Below are positions 5,551-34,000 of a DNA stretch of 64,000 nucleotides, piece after piece; the first letter of the stretch is position 1, and every line of letters begins with the position of its first letter. Source of the stretch: Chalara sp. BL73 (Eukaryota > Ascomycota > Leotiomycetes > Helotiales); the NCBI GenBank assembly GCA_918026815.1, contig CAKJVC010000124.1:124001-188000 (forward strand). Direction: 5' to 3'. Below the pieces are notes generated by a model. It was not told the DNA's origin. It worked only from the letters and a program-made list of their open reading frames with translations, and did no database searches. The translations under genes and the position numbers were made by a program.

Positions 5551-5916
5551 GGTCAATGCAGCGCTTACAGTGTATAGTGTTCTTGTAGCTTTTTTTGTAC
5601 TTACAGCGCTTACAGTATTTACTGTGTTTAAATAGTTATTCTTAACCAAGCGAAAAGTTTTAACGCAAGCTTAGCATTTTACTGTATAATTAACAAAATT
5701 CCGGGCGATATACAGTACTAGCCCATAAGTTCTCGTCCCCCAACAAAATCACCCCCGCCACCTAGTTACACTTTATTTAATAACTTTACAATCACATATC
5801 CAATTGATTTGATTTTGATTGCAAATAAATGACAAATAAGGCCTCTTTCATGTGCTCCATCCTTGAATTCCTTAGTATTTTGTATGCTAACCATTTGCTT
5901 TGATCACCGCCGCAAC

Positions 5917-5921
5917 CCTGT
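5917..5921. repeat. Target-site duplication CCTGT, left copy
   Basis: Five bases directly before the left LTR, identical to 12758-12762. Joining the flanks at this point restores the transposase reading frame. Confidence 0.85.
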
Positions 5922-6377
5922 TGTAACGTACGGGGTAGCCTCAGGCCTAGGTAGCTGGGCTTAGGGCTCGTTGGTTGGTATGGTATATATATGAAATAGA
6001 CTAGACACTGCTTCTCACTAAGGAATGAAACGTTACAAGTATAACAAAGACTATATTGCTAAACTATAATAAAAGTTAAGCACAAAGCTTCTAAACTATG
6101 AAACTGCAACTATTTATATACTATTTGTTGAGCTGGAGTTTCCTAAAGTCCTTAAAGTCTATATAAACTCCCAAGACTCCTCCAGACTTCGTCACGTGAC
6201 GCGGTCGCGGTTTTTAAGAGTCAATAAGCTATTTGCTTTTTTACTCACTTAAAGTCCTAAAATACTGGCTAATTTTAAAACCTACATTTTTAGAATTCTT
6301 ACTGGTCCTAAAACACCAGAGCGTCCTAAAGCTCCTTTTTTAAAGCTTTAGCAAGTCCCAGAATTCGGTTCGTGACA
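5922..6377 (-). repeat. 3' LTR of the chromovirus
   Basis: 456 bp, the same length as the right LTR. The outer (5922-side) half keeps GC-rich sequence such as GGGGTAGCCTCAGGCCTAGG. The inner half, from roughly 6140, shows C-to-T and G-to-A changes, for example TTTTAAAACC where the other LTR has CCTAGGACCC. Confidence 0.9.
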
Positions 6378-6392
6378 CTATTCCTTTTTTAC
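6378..6392 (-). other. Polypurine tract of the chromovirus
   Basis: The reverse complement of 6378-6392 is GTAAAAAAGGAATAG, a purine run ending exactly at the 3' LTR. This is where plus-strand DNA priming is expected, and it independently supports the minus orientation. Confidence 0.6.
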
Positions 6393-6512
6393 TTTAGCGT
6401 GCTTTCACGCTTAAATACAAGTAAAGAAATCTCGCGCGAAAAAACATAGCTTTTTTTTTTTCCCACTATACTACTTTAGCGCACGAGCAAAATCAAAAAT
6501 CGTAGTAAAAGT

Positions 6513-7064
6513 TTGTTCGAAAAAAAAATTCGTGAAAAATTTAAATTAGCTGATTTCATCGAGTTTGTCGGCGAAAAGATGTTTTTATGTACTCGGTGTA
6601 AAAAAAAAAATTTGAAATGTATTGCTGATTCAAAAAAAAAGCGTTTAGCGAAGTGTTCTAAATACATACGAGCGAAGTGTTTTTGCGACACGAGCGTTTT
6701 TTTGTTTAAGCGCTAAAACTCCGAAGTTCTACGTTTAGCTAATTAAATGTTTTTCGATCGCTAGCTGAAAAAGCTGAATAACGAAAAAAAAAAAGCTTCG
6801 GCTTAAGCCTAAAAAGCTATAGCTAAAATAGCCCGTTTCAAAAAACAAAAAGCTTTTATTAAAAGTCGTCGAAAAGAAATAGCTCGTCGTAGTTTTCGTT
6901 ATTTAAAAAAGTTAAATACTGCCGAAAAAAAAAAAAGAAAAAAAGCTGAAACAAAAAAAAACGAAATACAAAAGCAAATCGCTATTGCTAACGTCGCTTT
7001 TGCCGTTAGCGGATTTTATAACGATTTTTTAGCGAAATTCCTTAGTTTTTTAAACTTTTTTTAA
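6513..7064 (+). pseudogene. Extra antisense ORF of the chromovirus: Cys-rich plus coiled-coil protein
   Basis: On the opposite strand to pol and converging on its 3' end, one frame runs from about 6513 to TAA 7062-7064. It is broken only by stop codons of the kind RIP makes. The first part has a zinc-knuckle-like spacing: CTRCKKKNLKC, then KCSKYIRAKCFCD. A Lys/Arg/Glu-rich stretch with coiled-coil character follows, then a hydrophobic end (VAFAVSGFYNDFLAKF). The frame stays coherent far longer than expected by chance in a sequence this AT-rich, so it was probably a real gene. Its function is unknown. Additional antisense ORFs near the 3' end are known in some fungal LTR elements. Confidence 0.55.
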
Positions 7065-7139
7065 GCAAATCAAGATTTTGTTAATAAAACTTTGCTAACA
7101 ATTTAAAACAATTAAAGTTGTTTTTAAGTTTTTATGTAT

Positions 7140-10100
7140 TTTCTGAATATAAATAGTTTTTTTATTTAACGAAGTACTTAGTTTGTGTTTTAACGTATTT
7201 GCAGTCCAAAATTTGTTTTACTTTATACTCGGCGTTTAAGTTAACTAAAAAGATTTCGGTTTTTAGTATTAGTAAAATGCTCGATAGTGTTTTCTTAAAC
7301 AAAAATACGTAAAATACTAAATAAATATTTATATTTTTAAGCAAATCCAATTTGTAGTTTAAAAATCTTTTGACTTTTTTAATTTTGTACAGTTTTAATT
7401 TTTTGTAGTTTAGTTTGTCGCTTAGTTTTTTAATGTTAATATTTTTTTTAAGCAAATAAACTTTTTTTTTTTTTTCGAAAGTAAACTTTTAACTACGTTT
7501 TTTGTTGTAGTAATAAGCATTTTTTTTTGCTACAAACTGCAAGTTTTCCGCTAGTTTTTTATGCAGTTTTTTAATACTTTAAACTTTGACGTAAATATAT
7601 TTATTGTCGATATTTGTAATTTTTAGTTTTTTGTATATTACTAGCTCGTAGCTATAGTTGGCGAAAAATAGTAAAACTAGTATCGTTTTTGTAGTCGAAC
7701 TATTGTATGCGAATTGTACAAATAGCAATAGTTGAACTTAATTGTTTTGTTTGTAATTAATATAGTATTTTAAATATGTTTTTACTATTTAGTTTATTTT
7801 TTTCGTTTAACTATTTGTTTATAAATAAAAAAACGTAAATAGCTTTTTTTTAGCGCTTAACTGCGCTATAAAACTTGTTTAAAACTTAAATATAAAAAGT
7901 TTGTTTTTGTTCGATATAATTTTTTTTAGTAGTTTATACAAAGCGATTACTTTTTTAAAGAAAGTGTATACAAAGTTTTCTGCTGTACTTAACTTGCAGT
8001 ATAAAACGAGTATTATATATTTTGTTAGTTTTTTCACTACGACTAAAATAAAATCGTATTTTACTTTTGTTACTAAATTTTTAAATTTCGAAAGTTTAAC
8101 AATAAAGTTTTAAAATATTAATTTTTATAGTATAAGTAGTATCGAAGTTGTTTGTATTTACTTATAAAAAACTCGGCGTAAAGCTTTGTTTTTAATGCAA
8201 GTATTACAACCGCTAACTACCGTTTTTACTATAGCTTTTAGTTTTAAATACTAAAAAGTTTTTGCGATTTTTTTATACGTTTTTCTAATTTTTTAGTATT
8301 CGTATACAAAAAAGCTATATTGTTTTTTAACAAAGTTTTTTTTAATTTTTTTAAGTATATACAGTTTTTTTGTTTTTTTTTGTCGAAGAATCCTGTTATT
8401 TTTTTTATTTTTTTCGAAAGTTTTTTTTAGTATTCGTTGTACGTTTAAATTTCGTTTAGCGCTATTTTTAAAGCGTGCTAATTATAGTTCGATAAAGTTA
8501 TGCTTTACTGTTGCTGCAATTTTTTTTATATTTAAAACAAAGTTTTTATTTTCGAGCTTTTTAAATAAAGCTGTTTTTTAGTATACTTTAAAGTTTTCGT
8601 ACTTTAGTTTTTTACTAAGCGCGTTAGTTTTCGTATTGTTTGTTCCGTTAACGTGTTTAATAACTAAGTCGAATTTTGCTAGTTTTTTAGTTTATTTAGC
8701 TAATTTTCGATTGTTTAAAACTTTAGTAGTAGTAAAAGTTCGGAAATTTATATAATCGGTATAAATAGTAACTGTGAATTTTGCTTTTTGTAAATAAATG
8801 CGCTAGTGCTTTAGTGCTTCTACGATTGTAAGCAGTTTTTTTTTATAAATATTATAATTCTATTTTGCTAACAATATCGTTTTTAAAAAGTAAACAACGA
8901 AGTATAGTTTGTTGTTGTTGTTTTTTTAGAAATAAACTGCTTTTATTATTATATTCGAAGCATTAGTTTTAACTATGCTTTTTTTATTTTTATTATAGTA
9001 TTAAAAAATTAGTTTTTTAGCGAATTTGTTTTTAATTTCTTTAAAAACTGCTTTTTAATTTATTTTTTACTCGAAAAATACGTTTTTTTTAGTTAGTTGT
9101 ATTAAAAAGTAAGCTAACTCTAAATATTTTTTAATAAATTGTCGGCAAAAGTTAACAAACTTTAAAAATAATTGCACGTTTTTAACGTTACGTAGTAATT
9201 TTTATTTTTAAATGTTTTTAATTTTAATAAAATCGATAACGAAGTATTTTGCTTCGACAATATATTTAAAAAATTTACTTTAGTAACGCTAAATTTACAC
9301 TTCGACAACTTTAAGCGAAAGTTTATTTGTGCGAATTTCCGCATAACTTGTTTTACGTGTTTTTCGTGTTTTTCCGGTTTTTTCGAGTAAATTAAAATGT
9401 TATCGAAATAGTATACAACTGTTTTTTACAAAAAATTTTTTAAAATGTCTTTGTTTTGCTTTTAGCAAGTTGTAAAAGTATTAGTTAAGCCGAAAAACAT
9501 AACTATATACTTTTATAGCTCCGAAAGTAATATAAAAGCTGTTTTTTATTTATAGCTTTTTTTAATTCGTATTAAAACAAACGAGTTTTTTTAATTAAGT
9601 TTAGTAAATATTTTTGCTTTAATTAAGCTGTTTCGCAAATACTAGCTACTAAATACAGGATATACGTTTTTTATTGTAATACTATTCAAATTACGATAGT
9701 TTACGCAAAGTTTTTTTTTAGAGTTTTTTTTGTTTTTTTTTTTTTTTGTGCTAGCAGTATATTCGATACTGTTAGTAATTTAAACTTTTTAATTTATTTT
9801 TTTTTTGCTGATTTTTCTATATACTTTTTAAGCGTTTTTAAAGTTTGTAAATTGTATAGTTTTAGTTTTTCAAAAAGTAGCTTTTTTTTTTTTTTCAAAT
9901 TAATTTTATAATTTTATAGTTAATATTTTAGTAAAACACGTATATTTTGTAAGTTTTTAAACAGCTGTAAAAATTTTTTATATAATACAAGTATTTAGTC
10001 GAATGCGTTTTTTGCGCTTCGCTGCACCGAACTTTTAAATTTTCGGAATTCCGGCTTAAAAAAAGCAGCGCTAGCTTTTTTCTCGCTATGCGTATTCTGT

Positions 10101-11040
10101 AAGTTACTTTTTACACAAGTGCATTTATTAAACTAAATACTGTCGTTCGTTTAGTTTATATTTAAATTGTGCTTTTTAACTTAAAAAGTCTCGAAAATAA
10201 CATTATATTTTTCGATTAGTATAACGTTTAATACTATTTTTTCGGTGTGCTTTTTTAATATAACTATTTTTATAAACAAAGTTTTTTTTTTAATTTATTT
10301 ATTTATGCCGACATTTTTTCTATTTATCGCTATTACTTAATACGGTTTTTTTTTGTATATAGTTTTAATAGTTTTTTTTTAAATATACTTCGTATTAATA
10401 TACGTGTTTATTGCTTCGGTATTAATTATAACTTTAGTGTTTTTGCTTTTAAATTTTACTTTTTTTTTAAGTTAGTACAGTTTTAACGTAGTTACTGCTT
10501 GTTTTAGTTTTTGTTCGCGAATAACGTTGCTATATATAACGTTTAACTATATTTTGTAATCGAGCTTTTTTTTTATTAACTTGTAAAGTTTATTTTTTTT
10601 TAAGTAATTGAATTTTTGTTTTTTATTTTTTGCGAATATTTTGTAGTTAAAATTTCTAGTTATTTTACACTAAAAACAGCGTTTTTTTTGCTTAACTATT
10701 ATTTCTTAAGTATCGTTTTTTTTTAAGTACTGTTTCAGTTTTAAAAGTTTTTTTTTAGCTGTATATTTTTCGATAGTTTTTCCGTTTGCTAGTTAAAACG
10801 CTACATAGCGTTCGTTTTTGTATATAACTTTAGTTTTTATACCGAAAAATTCCGTGTTTATGTTTTTTTTTTGCAGTTTTTTTTAATAATCAAGCTTTTT
10901 TATATTTGTCAAAAAGAACTATACTCTAGCTCTTTTTTCGAATAAAGCTAATTTTTATTTTTTACTAACTTCCGAGTATAGTTTTAGTGCTAGCGCTAGA
11001 CTTATAGTTCTTAAAGCAAAAAAGCCGGGCTCCGAAAGTT
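7140..11040 (-). pseudogene. Ty3/gypsy pol polyprotein relic (RT, RNase H, integrase, chromodomain)
   Basis: Read on the minus strand, dispersed but ordered motifs survive. The reverse transcriptase active site YFDNILIYS lies at about 9387-9410; the canonical YFDD has lost its second Asp by G to A. The RT thumb KLSKCKFSVTKVNFL lies in 9344-9162. The end of RNase H (LAKFDLVIKHVNGTN) is at 8682-8641. The post-integrase region KIKKVKRFLNYKLDL...NIYLVFYVFLF runs downstream from about 7400. The chromodomain start AEYKVKQILDCKYVKTQTKY lies in 7231-7165. Stops and frame breaks fill the gaps. The upstream limit, including protease, is not resolved. Confidence 0.85.
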
Positions 11041-11062
11041 GTGTTATTATTTTTATGTTTTC

Positions 11063-11238
11063 TGTTGAGAATCTCTATTTTAGAGGTTCAAGGAAGTGTC
11101 ATGTATATGTGATCAAGCACGTGACGTTCCGTCACGTGGTTGGCTTGGCATGGAAAACTCTGTATATAGAACGCGTAGCATACAACCTCACAATACACAC
11201 CTGTAATTCCTACGCTTCCGCACCCACCCTTTTTAATA
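11063..11238. mobile_element. Probable solo LTR inserted after RIP
   Basis: An island of normal base composition inside the AT-rich body. It begins TGTTGAGAATCTCTATTTTA and contains GTGACGTTCCGTCACGTGG, TATATA and the pyrimidine-rich stretch CTTCCGCACCCACCC. A 5' TG and about 170 bp suit a small LTR, possibly copia-type. TTTTC precedes it at 11058-11062 and recurs at 11239-11243, a weak candidate duplication in a T-rich context. The end point is uncertain by about 15 bp. Confidence 0.5.
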
Positions 11239-11239
11239 T

Positions 11240-12300
11240 TTTCGAGTTTTTTTTTAAAAAACTTATAAAAAATCTTTCGTGTTTTATATTTTTTTACATG
11301 TTTTTTTATACAAACTTTTTTAACTTAAATAGTATTAGTCTGTTTTTTACTGCTGTTTTTTTTGTAAAATAAAGCTATATACTTTTTTTTGCTGCAAATA
11401 TAACACAGCTTGTTTTTTTTTCTGTACTGCATTTTTTTTTTAAATATAAATTTCTTTTTTTTTGTAGCGTTTAACTTTATAAGCTCCGGCTAACGGTTTA
11501 GCTTTTTTTTTAAATTACGCTTTTTTTTTTTCGTTTTTGTAGTACCGGCGTTTTTTTATAAATTTCTGATTTCTGTAAAAATTACTAATTCTGTTGTTTA
11601 TTAATACGGACATTTCGATTAATAATTCTATATTCGTAAAGTTGTTTATTCGAGCGAATTCGACTTAAACGTAAACTTTAAGCTTTTTTATGTAATAGCT
11701 AATTAAAGCCTGAGCGTTTTAGTCGGTTTAAACAGCGTGTTTCTTGAATTTCGTAGCGTAAACAATAGTCGTTTTTGTTTATTGTAAGCTATACAAGTAT
11801 CGTTTAACAGTTTTTTTTTCGTTTATGTTCTCGAATACTGTTTTAATTGCTTTTTTGAATTTCGACTATTTTTTTAATACTATTTTAGTAGCTGCTATAT
11901 ATTTGTCGATGTTTTCGTTATGTTAAAAGTAGTTTTTTAAAAGCAGCATAACTTATTTGGCCGCATTTCTTTTAAAATAAAAAACAGCGAACAAACAGTA
12001 AGTTTTTTTATAAAAAAACTTGTTGTTGTTGAATTTCTAGTAAATTTCTATTTAAAAAAAAAAAGTTTTTAAATCTTTTCTGTTTCTGTAGTATTTGTCC
12101 GGCAAAAAAACTTTTAAAGTTTCCGAAACTTCGACTTTAATAAGCTCGACGTTAAAAAGCTCGATGTTTTCGTTTTTGTCGGTAACAGTAATGTTTAAAA
12201 TAACTACTTTTTTTTTTGCTTTTTGTTTAACTGTGCTAGCAGAAAAACTTTTTGTGTTAAATGCTATGTTGCTTAGTTACTTTAAGACCGGATGCTTAAA
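11240..12300 (-). pseudogene. Probable gag region of the chromovirus, unreadable
   Basis: By position, between the 5' LTR and pol, this should hold the primer-binding site and gag. I could not identify a capsid or CCHC knuckle through the mutations. ORF 12095-12334 (+) is a by-product of AT bias. Confidence 0.3.
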
Positions 12301-12301
12301 G

Positions 12302-12757
12302 TATAACGTACGAAATAGCTTCAGGCTTAAATAGCTAAGCTTAAAGCTCGTTAGTTAGTATAGTATATATATAAAATAAACTAAACACTGCTTTTTACTA
12401 AAAAGTAAAACGTTACAAGTATAACAAAAACTATATTGTTAAACTATAATAAAAATTAAGCACAAAACTCTTAAACTATAAAACTGCGACTACTTATATA
12501 CTATTTGTTAAACTGAAGTTTCCTAGAGTTTTTAGAGTTTATATAAACTCCTAAAACTTCTCCAGACTCCGTCACGTAACGCGGTCGCGGTTTCCAAGAG
12601 TCAATAAGCCATTTGCTTTTTTACCCACTTAAAGTCCTAGAATACTGGCTGATCCTAGGACCCACATCCCTAGGATCCTCACTGGTCCTGGGACACCAGA
12701 GCGTCCTGGGGCTCCTCCCCTGGGGCCTCAGCAGGTCCCAGGATTCGGTTCGTGACA
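12302..12757 (-). repeat. 5' LTR of the chromovirus
   Basis: 456 bp. The mutated half is again the inner one (12302 to about 12,560). The outer 12,600-12,757 keeps GC-rich sequence such as CCTGGGGCTCCTCCCCTGGG. This is the mirror image of the left LTR. Confidence 0.9.
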
Positions 12758-12762
12758 CCTGT
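12758..12762. repeat. Target-site duplication CCTGT, right copy
   Basis: Five bases directly after the right LTR, identical to 5917-5921. Confidence 0.85.
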
Positions 12763-13904
12763 ATAGCATACTATCCGCAAGCTGTTCAAATAAACTATTA
12801 AGTAATAGGTCTCAAGCCTCAATTAAAGCGTTTTCTAAAGCTTTAATAGCATTTTTTCCTTTTCCTATTCTTTCAAATTCTGAGTGCTTTTGTAGAACGA
12901 GCTTTTTAAAGTAGTACTACACGTGTTCGATAGAATTCAAATCGAGAAAGAACGGAAGCTAATTAGTCACTAGTATTGCGTTATCCACAAACTAATTAGT
13001 AATTGCGCGAGCTGTATGAATAAGTGCGTTGTCGTGCATGAAAGTAAAGCCAGGTTGCTAATAAGTAAATATTTAATCTTCGAGTACTTCGAGGTAAAAG
13101 CGTGCAAAGTAGTTATGCTTTTTTAACTCGAAGTCTCGACTTAATATATAAAAACCAAAACGTTGTATTTTTCCTGCAATAAACCAAAAGCAAGCCTATA
13201 CTATAACTGATATATCTCGGCTTTTAAAGTACGTTAATACTATTTTTGGTTCCTATTTTTCAATAGCTGTACGAAAGCACTATTTTTCTGCACGGCTTTT
13301 TCTGCGTTCTGCCGAACACTCGTTACTCCACATGTATTTTTTTCAATCGTCGAAAGTTTAATTTTTTCGAGCTTTGCACTAAAAATACTTCTTTTTAGCT
13401 ACTTCAAGTGTAAGTGCGGGTCGCTTTTTACAACGTTAGTTGTGGATGCCGGACGGTTCGAGCATACGCTTCAATGTAAAGTCTTCGTATTCCCACTCTA
13501 TTTCTTTTCGAATCTCGTCGTACGTGTGTTTCGAGTGTTGACGAACATGTTTTACAAAACGACGTACGTGATGTACATTCTATTCCTTTGGCCGGCCGCT
13601 ACGAGGCTGTAAGTGGCTTTCGTTGCGTAAATGATCGAGGTAAATAGTCGATTTGACAGTCGATATTGGCTCTTTTAGGACCTTTGCAATGTCGCTCACT
13701 TTTGCACCTAATAATGCCGCTCCAGTGATCTGCCCTCTCTTGTGAGAAGTTAAAGGCTTCTTTGCAACCTTATTACAAGATATAGGGCCTAAAGGAGTAC
13801 GTGAGGTAGGCATATTGTCAATTGAATGAAGGAGGGTTGAAAGTATGAGGATCGCGAATCGCGATTTTTCGCGTTTTAGCCGAGGACTTTTGGTGGGTCA
13901 CTGT

Positions 13905-14130
13905 ATACTATAAAATACATAGTTGCAATGTAACTACGTTAAGCAGTGCATCAATTGCAGGCCAAAGTTACAGTGCAAGTAGATGCAGAACGCGACGCGA
14001 GATCATTTTGGTGGGGTGCCCGGGGGGGTAGTTTTTGCATCAAAATTATAAACCTACCATAGTGGTGAATGTATTGAAACCCCTTCCAGGGGCACTGCCT
14101 TGCATAATACTTTTTATTTTTCTTGGTAAA
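13905..14130. other. Intergenic between the transposon island and the next gene
   Basis: No gene. It includes the stretch CGCGACGCGAGATCATTTTG followed by a run of seven G, possibly the end of another old transposon, but no partner end was found. Confidence 0.3.
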
Positions 14131-31072: not shown

Positions 31073-34000
31073 TCAATGTCTCTCGAAGGACGCTTTGCTG
31101 GCGCTGTCAGCCTGATGTGGCGCACCTACTATAGGTAGCTCTCCTCGATCTCTCGCGCTATCGTTTGAGACAGCTTGCGGACTCACGATGCCCGTTCTCG
31201 GGTCGATCCGCTGTGTTGTATTTTCCTTCCCTTCCAGTCCCGTTTCCACCCTGTGATCCCTCCTTATCCCGCCGGCGAGTTCAATATTCTCCATCTTGCC
31301 ATCCTTTTCATTCCATGTCGTCCTTGGTGTCACCGCGCTGCCTGGATTCGAAGCTTCAGGGATATCTGGCATATCGCTGACTAACGGGTCTCTCGTTCCC
31401 GCTTCTAGTTCTCCAAGATCCATCTCCTCGTCTAATGTATTACCGCGACGGTTGCGACTGAAAAAGCGATTTCGGTGTGTCTTACCGCTAGTGCCCGAAG
31501 TCATCTTTGTTAAGCCCGAATCCTTCGAGGTGATTTTGTCCAAGGCTGTGCTATCTTCACTGTGGCGAGAGTCGCGAGATTGGGAATTACGACCGCCTCG
31601 CTCTTGTGACGAAGATGTAGTATATATCGTCGGAATGCGAGGCTTAGGCTTATCGTCGTAGACATCACCAAAGTCGGCTCCCGAGGATATACTGGACATG
31701 CCTAGGGAGAAATCTACACGCTTGCCCATAGCACCGATAGACTCGCCGCGTTGACGACCGCCAGGGCCAGATGAGGTTGATACACCACGGTGACGAAGGA
31801 TTGATGGGTGCGCAGTTGGAGCAGTACCAGTATGGACGTTCGACTCCAATGGGGAAGCGACGTAAGGTGTATCGCGAGCCAGAGATCCTGAGCGAGGTCC
31901 AGGTCCACGAGGCTCGTCTGGTCGATCCGGGCCTTGAGGCGGCTGCTGGGGCTGCGGGAAGGCACCATTGAGATGCATTGGAAATTCTGGAGCGGCGCCA
32001 GCAAGGCGCATACGCGGCCCTTCCATACCGAGCTCTTGCATCGTGACCATCATAGCGCAGATGAACTTGTTGCGGCGTTGAAGACGGAGAAGTTCATTTT
32101 GCCAGTTGGACTTGTAGAAGAATACCACGTTCAATGTAATGGAGTAAGCCTCGTAGATTGTCGTAAGCTCCGTGAGGATGTTCTTCTGATACTCCCTGTT
32201 TTCTGATGTAACGAACTCCAAAAGGCGATTGCGAAGGGTTTCGATCTGCTCCAGGGTCGTTCCAAATTTGACAGTTACTGGAACGGCTTCGGCAAGACCA
32301 CCTGACCGACGTTGATTCAAGATGAAAAGGGTGTTAAGGTAGCTATTTGGAGCCTGGACCACATGACCTTCCATCTTCTTGAACTCAGTGTATAGAAGGG
32401 AGATCTCTTTCACAAAGTAGTCATCACCTTGCATATTGGAGCCGGTATTTCCGTATATCCTGACACGGTCACCAACATCGAAAGGGTGCTTGACGAAGAC
32501 GAAGATCAAGGATTGCAAGAACTCCTGAGCAGTAGCCGAGAATAGCCAAGATAGCGCTAACACGGTGGAGCCCAGAGATGTGAGAGCAGTTGAAGCCGAG
32601 ACAGAGATCAAGGAGATAAACACCAAGATAGTGATGACAAAGACAATGAACAAGAACACGTCGTCTAATTTCGAGACGACCGAATCCAAATCCTTGAGTG
32701 AGGCAGTAATGGCTTTACGCTCACGGCCAATCTCGACGCAAACAGCTTCGAGCTCTTCCATAGAGATATCTCCATTAAGATCCTTGTCGAACATGGCAAA
32801 TGCTGCAGTAGCCTCGTCGTCATTATCGAAGGCCAGTCTCAAATCATCCGAGAACACGGTTTCCGCATCCTCGTGGACGAAGGTGCGATAAAGCCGGCGG
32901 GCCAGGACTTGCGAGCCAGTGGTCGAGTTGAGAAGCTGAAGGATCACCTGATGCGGGTGAGTGCTACCAGTAACCTGTTTCCCGGTGAAATCACCTGCTA
33001 CTTTCCCGGCCACATCACCGACCTTGTTGAATACCTGATGCGCGTTTTTCTTGGCTTTTTGAACTATGACCATGGGTGTTCGTACTCCGGAGGAGGCACC
33101 TTCAGTGTTTGGCCCGCTCTCAAACTCGGAATCCTCCATGGCAATCTTTTCCTTAGAGTAAATGTATAATTTCACCAAACTGGATATTTGGAACTTGTTG
33201 ACCTCAATTCGATCGGCATAAGTCCGTAGATGGAAGCTTATCGCGATGAGCTGAATAATAATCTTTTCGATGAAGTTCAACACTGCCGCAACAAACAAGG
33301 AGATGATAACGCGGTTCATTGTTCTCTCCCAACTCCTGGTGTCTTTGCTACCATCAACATGATGATTCTTCATGGTTGGGAGGAACGAGATTTCGATGGC
33401 AAGCCACCAGAAGAATATAGTAGCTGGGACTTCAAGGGCTTTCCCTAGATCTCTCCATTTCTTGCTGTTGTTAGTGAAGAGACTGGCGATCATGCCCATA
33501 GGCCAGGGTATCATTTTTGAGATGATCTACACATGTCAGTCAGGAAAACTTAAATGAACCCATGAACATACTCTTCCAAGCCATAGGGTCAGCCACACAA
33601 TCTCTAGCCAGATGCCAAACCAAAATAACCTGACACCCCCCACATCGGCGTTCTCGAAGACAAGAAGTCCAAGCAAAACCGGTACTAGTAGTAGAATGGC
33701 TACAGGCGATATATAACAGAAATATCGAACCAGGAAGCTTGACTGGTGCACTCGCTTGAAAAGTTTGGCCAGCCTCGTGGTAGGATTTGCAGGTGGCTTG
33801 TAGATCTTGGTCTTCTCATGTATAGGCGTCGTTCCAATATCAAAATCGTCAAGAGGTTCCGATCCACCATTCCGTGACCTCGACCGTGCTATTGACTTTG
33901 ACCTTCCCACATGTGTTTGGTCGTCAGATTTGTCTCCACTGGATGCGACCCTTTCGGCGCGTAACATAAGGAGATCGTCATCAAGTCGCTGCGATATTTC

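What the first reader, a model, noticed from the sequence alone, without database searches (positions are those of the whole stretch)
6130..12600. RIP tract has sharp edges inside the two LTRs, leaving both outer LTR halves intact
The two LTRs are the same 456 bp, yet the left one is mutated only in its inner part and the right one only in its inner part. Position, not sequence, therefore decided what was mutated. The adjoining Tc1 sequence at 12,763-13,560 is also mutated, so the outer right LTR half is a spared island. This argues for two mutation episodes, or for a boundary that stops mutation near the junctions.
Basis: seen in the sequence. Interest (0 to 1): 0.75.

Follow-up and report, generated by a model that had tools for sequence, protein, structure and literature searches.

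The report
Repeat-mutating defence that spares repeat ends
In this fungus a genome defence that riddles mobile DNA copies with C-to-T mutations leaves roughly the last 100-250 letters at each end of a copy nearly untouched, and picks its targets by the letter before the C, both unlike the textbook version of this defence.

Summary
The element at 5922-12757 is a Ty3/Gypsy chromovirus coded on the minus strand, with 456-bp LTRs and a CCTGT target duplication. Each of its LTRs is mutated mainly on the inner side. So are the rest of the family examined: 27 of 27 distinct left LTRs and 19 of 19 distinct right LTRs. In 11 paired copies the two LTRs differ by 920 transitions and 6 other mismatches, split by position. 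A Tc1-like and a hAT-type transposon show similar spared ends. In one host copy broken by a later insertion the interior beside the break is spared; a second broken host points weakly the same way, others do not. So distance to the end of homology, not LTR biology, probably sets the boundary. The target motif is YCH (pyrimidine before C, no G after), not the CpA of classical RIP. Best reading: a RIP-like, homology-directed mutator that needs unbroken homology on both sides of a cytosine. The enzyme is unidentified. Crossover, gene conversion and transcript-limited mutation are disfavoured. A shield around transposon ends is not excluded.

The parts
5711..5921 (.). left part of the Tc1-like host transposon (begins TACAGTAC; includes one copy of the CCTGT target duplication)
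   Evidence: comparison with 7 other copies
5917..5921 (.). target-site duplication CCTGT, left
5922..6377 (-). left LTR (the 3' LTR in coding orientation)
5922..6050 (.). spared outer part of the left LTR (graded edge, somewhere in 6025-6146)
   Evidence: change point between LTR positions 126 and 139
6146..12578 (.). heavily C-to-T / G-to-A mutated tract (motif YCH), interrupted by the insert at 11063-11238
7087..9731 (-). remains of pol: chromodomain about 7087-7227, integrase H2C2 8182-8292, RNase H 8671-9051, reverse transcriptase 9267-9731
   Evidence: Pfam on minus-strand pieces with X at stops; H2C2 and chromodomain scores are just under Pfam's cut-offs
11063..11238 (.). GC-richer short insert inside the element, consistent with a solo LTR of another family (apparent TSD TTTTC); right end read by eye
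   Evidence: a second copy, about 95% identical, sits in L053
12302..12757 (-). right LTR (the 5' LTR in coding orientation)
12594..12757 (.). spared outer part of the right LTR
   Evidence: last right-mutated site 12578
12758..12762 (.). target-site duplication CCTGT, right
12763..13905 (.). right part of the Tc1-like host transposon, mutated in its middle, spared near its right end

Best explanation
A RIP-like defence recognises two homologous DNA tracts and mutates cytosines in the motif YCH on both strands. A cytosine is hit efficiently only if homology runs on unbroken for roughly 100-250 bp on both sides, so each homologous tract keeps nearly unmutated ends. In an LTR element the homology ends at the outer ends of the two LTRs, so the outer parts escape while the identical inner parts are mutated. 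A lone 456-bp LTR would be touched at most in its centre. Shown: position dependence, the motif, end sparing in three transposon types, and sparing at one internal break. Inferred: that the cause is homology recognition, that it acts before meiosis, and which enzyme does it. In the window the likely order is: Tc1-like copy mutated, Gypsy element inserted (CCTGT), Gypsy element mutated.
For: 27 of 27 distinct left LTRs are more mutated in the last 100 bp than in the first 100, and 0 of 19 distinct right LTRs are. Reference-free within 11 copies: 6 v 293 and 408 v 17. 10 of the 11 pairs share a 5-bp TSD and the TSDs differ between copies, so these insertions are independent. Change points vary by copy, 37-202 bp from the outer end in 24 of 27 left LTRs and 87-206 bp in all 19 right ones, unlike a fixed sequence boundary. 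hAT-type copy B against little-mutated copy A: YCH mutated 322/394 in the middle, 0/17 in the left 150 bp, 0/15 in the right 150 bp. Two more hAT copies: 0/21 and 2/19 in the first 200 bp. Tc1-like copy of the window: 50/109 in the middle against 9/66 at the ends, p = 8e-6, zones chosen after seeing the bins. Internal break: Gypsy host copy A, cut at element position about 1942 by Gypsy copy B, has 4/19 mutated columns within 100 bp on the left and 11/21 on the right, each the lowest of 28 copies (median of others 0.95). A hAT host on C169, cut by another Gypsy copy, is low beside the cut on both sides: 4/21 v 74/143 within 157 bp (p = 0.005) and 6/22 v 108/223 within 160 bp (p = 0.07); with 100-bp windows 3/12 and 3/12 (p = 0.13, 0.14). 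The unbroken Gypsy copy B dips at the place matching A's break, 12/19 and 12/21, its two lowest of 23 windows.
Against: Only one internal break is strongly spared, and its right side only moderately. No sparing was seen at: the break of copy X on C196 (right side only held); the hAT host of X (13/19 v 71/118 on the left, 6/10 v 121/183 on the right); the short insert in L053 and the right side of the window's insert. Unclear: a solo LTR in a hAT on C3 (2/17 and 4/11 v 53/145). These must be read as later insertions or too-short breaks, which is not shown. Outer parts are mutated in left LTRs C132:80743 (0.69), C85:54030 (0.41), C69:178639 (0.29) and C182:146627 (0.18), two of them beside other copies of the family, and in C127:218825 (10/22 in the first 100 bp), a left LTR with a deletion that my flank test filed under 'other'. 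The dip in copy B is only the 4th lowest of 29 copies when any 200-bp window is allowed. The spared width differs between families. No mating experiment.
Confidence: 0.72

Rival explanations
1. A chromatin boundary or bound protein at transposon ends shields DNA for 100-250 bp around each end, whatever the homology.
For: Would explain sparing at the ends of three transposon types and on both sides of the A/B junction, since B's end lies there.
Against: Needs the same shield for unrelated ends (Gypsy LTR, hAT, Tc1-like). Host X and its hAT host on C196 are mutated right beside inserted ends, although this could be order of events. The dip in unbroken copy B at the place matching A's break is not expected, but it is weak.
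Confidence: 0.13
2. The mutated tract is the transcribed part of the retrotransposon (R to R): mutation is tied to transcription or to RNA.
For: Inner LTR parts plus the interior are roughly what a Gypsy transcript covers, and in the window copy both edges lie near the same LTR positions. Weak same-strand clustering of mutations in two of seven hAT pieces (B 299 v 284.1, sd 6.5; L044 61 v 53.5, sd 3.5) and a strand difference in L080 (33/159 v 14/180).
Against: Edges vary between copies by over 100 bp. Similar sparing occurs at both ends of hAT-type and Tc1-like transposons and at an internal break. No same-strand clustering in the other five hAT pieces.
Confidence: 0.05
3. Recombination: a mutated one-LTR circle integrated by one crossover into an unmutated solo LTR, or gene conversion restored the outer halves.
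For: In the window alone the two breakpoints nearly coincide (LTR 277 and 293), as a single crossover would give.
Against: The split is in every LTR of the two classes examined, with different TSDs in the pairs; breakpoints vary; non-LTR transposons show it too. Two LTRs on C100 with clean ends and mutated centre fit recombination after mutation, a side product.
Confidence: 0.03
4. Selection or mobility: only copies with intact ends spread, so intact ends are a survivor effect.
For: Transposase binding needs intact ends in DNA transposons (general knowledge).
Against: Reverse transcription makes both LTRs alike (general knowledge), so an asymmetric inner/outer pattern must arise after insertion. 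The spared host DNA at position about 1942 is no functional end.
Confidence: 0.03

Closest known systems
Repeat-induced point mutation (RIP), Neurospora crassa type
   Same: C-to-T on both strands, in repeated DNA; short repeats largely escape
   Different: Motif is YCH with no CpA preference; ends of the homologous tract are spared, whereas in N. crassa mutation is described as covering the extent of shared homology (PMC4858203, passages and section 11 read; that section does note a paucity in the first ~130 bp of one artificial construct)
RIP in Zymoseptoria tritici
   Same: repeat-directed C-to-T in transposons
   Different: There 240 of 242 new mutations in the duplicated region were CpA, and the most distal windows of transposons, mainly LTR ones, held the most new mutations (PMC10294615, passages read): the opposite distribution
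RIP signatures of Leotiomycetes (Botrytis, Sclerotinia, Phialocephala, Hymenoscyphus)
   Same: same fungal class; C-to-T bias in transposons; CpT as well as CpA reported (PMC4352252, passages and section 7 read; PMC5148876 and PMC8254937, passages read)
   Different: In the text read, these studies score the base after the C (dinucleotides or RIP indices); no test of the base before it was seen
TpCpG hypermutation in Microbotryum violaceum (basidiomycete)
   Same: a T before the C is part of a reported motif (cited in a passage of PMC4352252)
   Different: there G follows the C; here a following G is avoided, and C before the C serves as well as T
crapaud LTRs of Podospora
   Same: LTRs of full copies mutated, solo LTRs largely not (PMC10787394, passages and section 11 read)
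   Different: no inner/outer split within one LTR is described in the section read
APOBEC3 hypermutation
   Same: 5' neighbour (TC or CC) decides (recalled)
   Different: here both strands of integrated DNA are hit and the two LTRs of a copy differ; a cDNA editor would leave both LTRs alike (recalled)

Membership tests
classical RIP | C-to-T transitions on both strands in repeats | tested here: met
   920 transitions against 6 other mismatches in 11 pairs; C-strand 212/279 and G-strand 224/310 in the heavily mutated hAT copy
classical RIP | CpA preference | tested here: not met
   hAT copy: CA 0.51, CT 0.49, CC 0.41, CG 0.07, but 5' base CC 0.78, TC 0.57, AC 0.11, GC 0.07; LTRs and Gypsy interior agree
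classical RIP | mutation over the whole extent of shared homology | tested here: not met
classical RIP | short repeats escape | tested here: inconclusive
   isolated LTRs of about 456 bp have nearly clean ends and a centre mutated 0/36 to 15/36, apart from the C100 pair and C127; they could be recombinants
classical RIP | depends on the RID methyltransferase | not testable with these tools
   four PF00145 matches at three places; their sequence could not be fetched, so RID and DIM-2 were not told apart
classical RIP | acts before meiosis | not testable with these tools
   no crosses
Ty3/Gypsy chromovirus | LTRs, 5-bp TSD, RT-RNaseH-INT-chromodomain | tested here: met
   (integrase H2C2 and chromodomain matches just under Pfam's cut-offs)
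hAT transposon (C77, C88 copies) | 8-bp TSD and matching CAGTG/CACTG ends | tested here: met
   (TSDs ATTGAGTG and TTTGGGAC); transposase domain not tested; the family name is recalled from these marks
Tc1/mariner (5711-13905) | transposase of the family and TA target | tested here: inconclusive
APOBEC3-type cDNA editing | one-strand G-to-A, both LTRs alike | tested here: not met

The most novel reading that the evidence does not exclude
A distinct branch of repeat-directed mutagenesis in Helotiales whose mutator reads the base 5' of cytosine (YCH), as a deaminase or a re-specialised RID might, and whose pairing step demands unbroken homology of about 100-250 bp on both sides. The twofold end exclusion would itself explain the minimum repeat length of RIP. 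Broken partners leave a matching imprint in the unbroken copy they paired with, so natural genomes record who paired with whom.
Probability: 0.35. Interest if true: 0.88.

Novelty: new variant of a known kind. Interest (0 to 1): 0.72.

Why it matters
How RIP senses homology without recombination is open. Paired LTRs are a natural control: the same 456 bp sits at a homology end and inside the tract in one copy, so the reach of recognition can be read from genomes. If end exclusion is general, it links the edge profile to the minimum repeat length, explains clean solo LTRs, and predicts that transposon ends stay usable while genes die. A 5'-pyrimidine motif would be missed by RIP indices that score the base after C.

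Tried and rejected
Single crossover of a mutated circle into a solo LTR: my first idea, dropped when searches showed the split across the family. Transcript limits (R to R): dropped for variable edges and DNA transposons. A correlation between how mutated a copy is and its edge was not significant (Spearman 0.23, p = 0.26). Strand clustering of mutations: weak in two of seven hAT pieces, absent in five. The first nested-junction count (0/12 v 10.0) used columns partly defined by the test copy and its duplicate; it was redone without them (0/6 v 5.1) and by rank. Columns may be defined by A or B too. L059 and L060 are truncated or deleted copies: no sparing and partial sparing, order of events unknown.

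Rows dropped: three LTR rows identical to others; the reference row; two LTRs held only in part (L038, L059). C127:218825 was filed under 'other' by its flank. Several kept rows are near-duplicates (for example C126:605889 and C126:615847).

Left undone: classifying the PF00145 methyltransferases and a search for APOBEC-like deaminases, because the genome machine stopped answering. The right LTR fetched (C180) was not analysed.

Literature: ten searches of an open-licence library. I found no report of spared repeat ends or of a YCH motif in the listings and the text I read; the nearest is the TpCpG motif of Microbotryum (passage). Subscription journals are not in it, so this is not proof of absence.

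Full report
The window lies in a 58.7-Mb genome in 199 contigs. A window protein (31073-33514) has its nearest named relatives, 70-74% identical, in Helotiales such as Cudoniella, Lachnellula and Mollisia, so this is very likely a leotiomycete fungus; the species is unknown.

What is there. A Tc1-like transposon (5711-13905) was split by a Gypsy element (5922-12757). The Gypsy element has 456-bp LTRs and the target duplication CCTGT. Its pol remains read on the minus strand: reverse transcriptase, RNase H, and weaker integrase zinc and chromodomain matches. So the window's right LTR is the 5' LTR. The two LTRs differ at 80 sites, all transitions. The right LTR is mutated at positions 2-277. 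The left LTR is mutated without a break from 293 to 441, with seven scattered sites before.

It is not a quirk of this copy. Searches of the own genome scored 40 of 134, 40 of 87, 40 of 106 and 40 of 122 candidates, so copy numbers are lower bounds; 68 loci were cut out. From them I aligned 59 LTRs: 28 left, 21 right, 10 other, classed by the flanking hexamer. With identical rows and the reference row removed, 27 left, 19 right and 9 other remained. Against one little-mutated solo LTR (C7:9896) as reference, counting only YCH sites, left LTRs are mutated 91/590 in the first 100 bp and 875/1133 in the last 100 bp; right LTRs 375/417 and 60/796. All 27 left and all 19 right rows show the split. 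One left LTR with a deletion (C127, filed under other) is 10/22 mutated in its first 100 bp. Without any reference, the LTR pairs of 11 copies give 6 left-mutated v 293 right-mutated sites in positions 1-150, 83 v 113 in 151-300 and 408 v 17 in 301-456, with 6 other mismatches in all. Ten of the 11 pairs have matching TSDs, and these differ between copies. Since reverse transcription makes the two LTRs alike, the asymmetry arose after each insertion.

Shape of the edge. By distance from the outer end, the mutated share is 0.07/0.05 (1-50 bp, left/right), 0.24/0.10 (51-100), 0.55/0.39 (101-150), 0.61/0.45 (151-200), 0.71/0.74 (201-250), then 0.63-0.80 left and 0.85-0.93 right. Per-copy change points vary: 24 of 27 left copies lie 37-202 bp from the outer end, the other three deeper; the 19 right copies lie about 87-206 bp from it. 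The profiles are similar on both sides and vary by copy, which suits distance from an end and not a fixed sequence.

The motif. In mutated LTR parts, C is changed in 0.63-0.89 of YCH sites, 0.02-0.33 of ACN and GCN sites, and 0.15-0.50 of YCG sites. In the hAT copy B the figures are 0.66-0.94, 0-0.17 and 0.10-0.21. In six more lightly mutated hAT pieces the 5' base matters about tenfold: A 0.03, G 0.04, C 0.34, T 0.26. The Gypsy interior agrees, counting variable columns only. Classical RIP is CpA. Here the 3' base matters mainly by excluding G.

Other transposons. A 3.8-kb hAT-type transposon has 8-bp TSDs and CAGTG/CACTG ends. Its mutated copy on C77 against a little-mutated copy on C88 gives 322/394 in the middle, 0/17 and 0/15 in the outer 150 bp, rising past 0.8 at 251-300 bp from both ends. 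Two other copies give 0/21 and 2/19 in the first 200 bp. The window's Tc1-like copy, compared with seven others, gives 50/109 in the middle and 9/66 at the ends (p = 8e-6; zones set after seeing the bins). Of those seven, three are identical, a fourth differs only by two gap columns, and another two are identical to each other, so transposition has been recent.

Internal breaks. Gypsy copy B inserted into host copy A of the same family. A's own TSD is GTAAC on both sides and B's is CGCAG; the flanks lie on contigs C126 and C184, which seem to be the two ends of one nested locus split by the assembly (flanks). At A's break (element position 1939-1944) the host is spared: 4/19 columns mutated within 100 bp on the left and 11/21 on the right, each lowest of 28 copies, whose median is 0.95. 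In a stricter count, with columns chosen without A or B, it is 0/6 against 5.1 expected on the left and 8/14 against 12.0 on the right within 150 bp (p = 0.008). Copy B, unbroken there, dips at the matching place, its two lowest of 23 windows. In a free scan B's dip is only 4th of 29 copies, so I call it suggestive. A hAT host on C169, cut by another Gypsy copy, is low within about 160 bp of the cut: 4/21 v 74/143 (p = 0.005) and 6/22 v 108/223 (p = 0.07), not significant with 100-bp windows. Copy X on C196, the hAT host of X and the short insert in L053 show no sparing; a solo LTR in a hAT on C3 is unclear.

Reading. Homology ends are the common factor of LTR outer ends, DNA-transposon ends and A's break. 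I propose that recognition needs homology on both sides of a site. Doubling the 100-250 bp exclusion gives 200-500 bp, near the 400-bp minimum quoted for N. crassa in PMC10294615 and PMC3562529 (passages). The main survivor among rivals is a shield centred on transposon ends.

Known work. N. [quoted passage not shown] Z. tritici has 240 of 242 mutations at CpA in a duplication and most new mutations in the outermost transposon windows (PMC10294615, passages). A survey of 1,239 fungi concludes that RIP-like defences share a CpA preference (PMC12543289, abstract, passages and section 9). Botrytis and Sclerotinia are scored CpA and CpT by a 3'-base tool, and a TpCpG motif is cited for Microbotryum (PMC4352252, passages and section 7). 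Passages of PMC7296669 and PMC11969663 showed no discussion of edges. End sparing and the YCH motif therefore look unreported in what I could search (the ten searches named under tried and rejected).

Noticed in passing
window 11063-11238: GC-richer insert inside the mutated tract, likely a solo LTR of another family (TGTTGAGAATC.., apparent TSD TTTTC); a copy about 95% identical sits in the C112 element (L053).
   Followed up: partly
L003/L010 (C148:127806) and L007/L015 (C148:101684): Two opposite-facing isolated LTRs about 26 kb apart lack TSDs of their own, but ATTTT lies upstream of one and downstream of the other, as an inversion by LTR-LTR recombination might leave.
   Followed up: no
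L012, L014 (C100:165526, C100:157449): Two near-identical LTRs with nearly clean ends and a mutated centre, as expected for a solo LTR formed after mutation and then duplicated.
   Followed up: partly
L070-L075: Tc1-like copies at different places are identical in two groups (L070-L071; L072-L074, with L075 differing by two gap columns), so this family moved very recently.
   Followed up: partly
C126:603973 and C126:613906 (L065, L054): A nested element pair is present twice about 10 kb apart with the same left-LTR sequence, a late duplication or an assembly repeat.
   Followed up: no
window, L018/L045, L021, L023/L044: Copies of this Gypsy family or its solo LTR often sit inside other transposons (Tc1-like, hAT), as chromodomain integrases may favour.
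   Followed up: no
G000:C79:18167, C82:1038281, C164:36864: Three places match the C5 DNA methyltransferase family PF00145; not classified as RID, DIM-2 or Masc2.
   Followed up: partly
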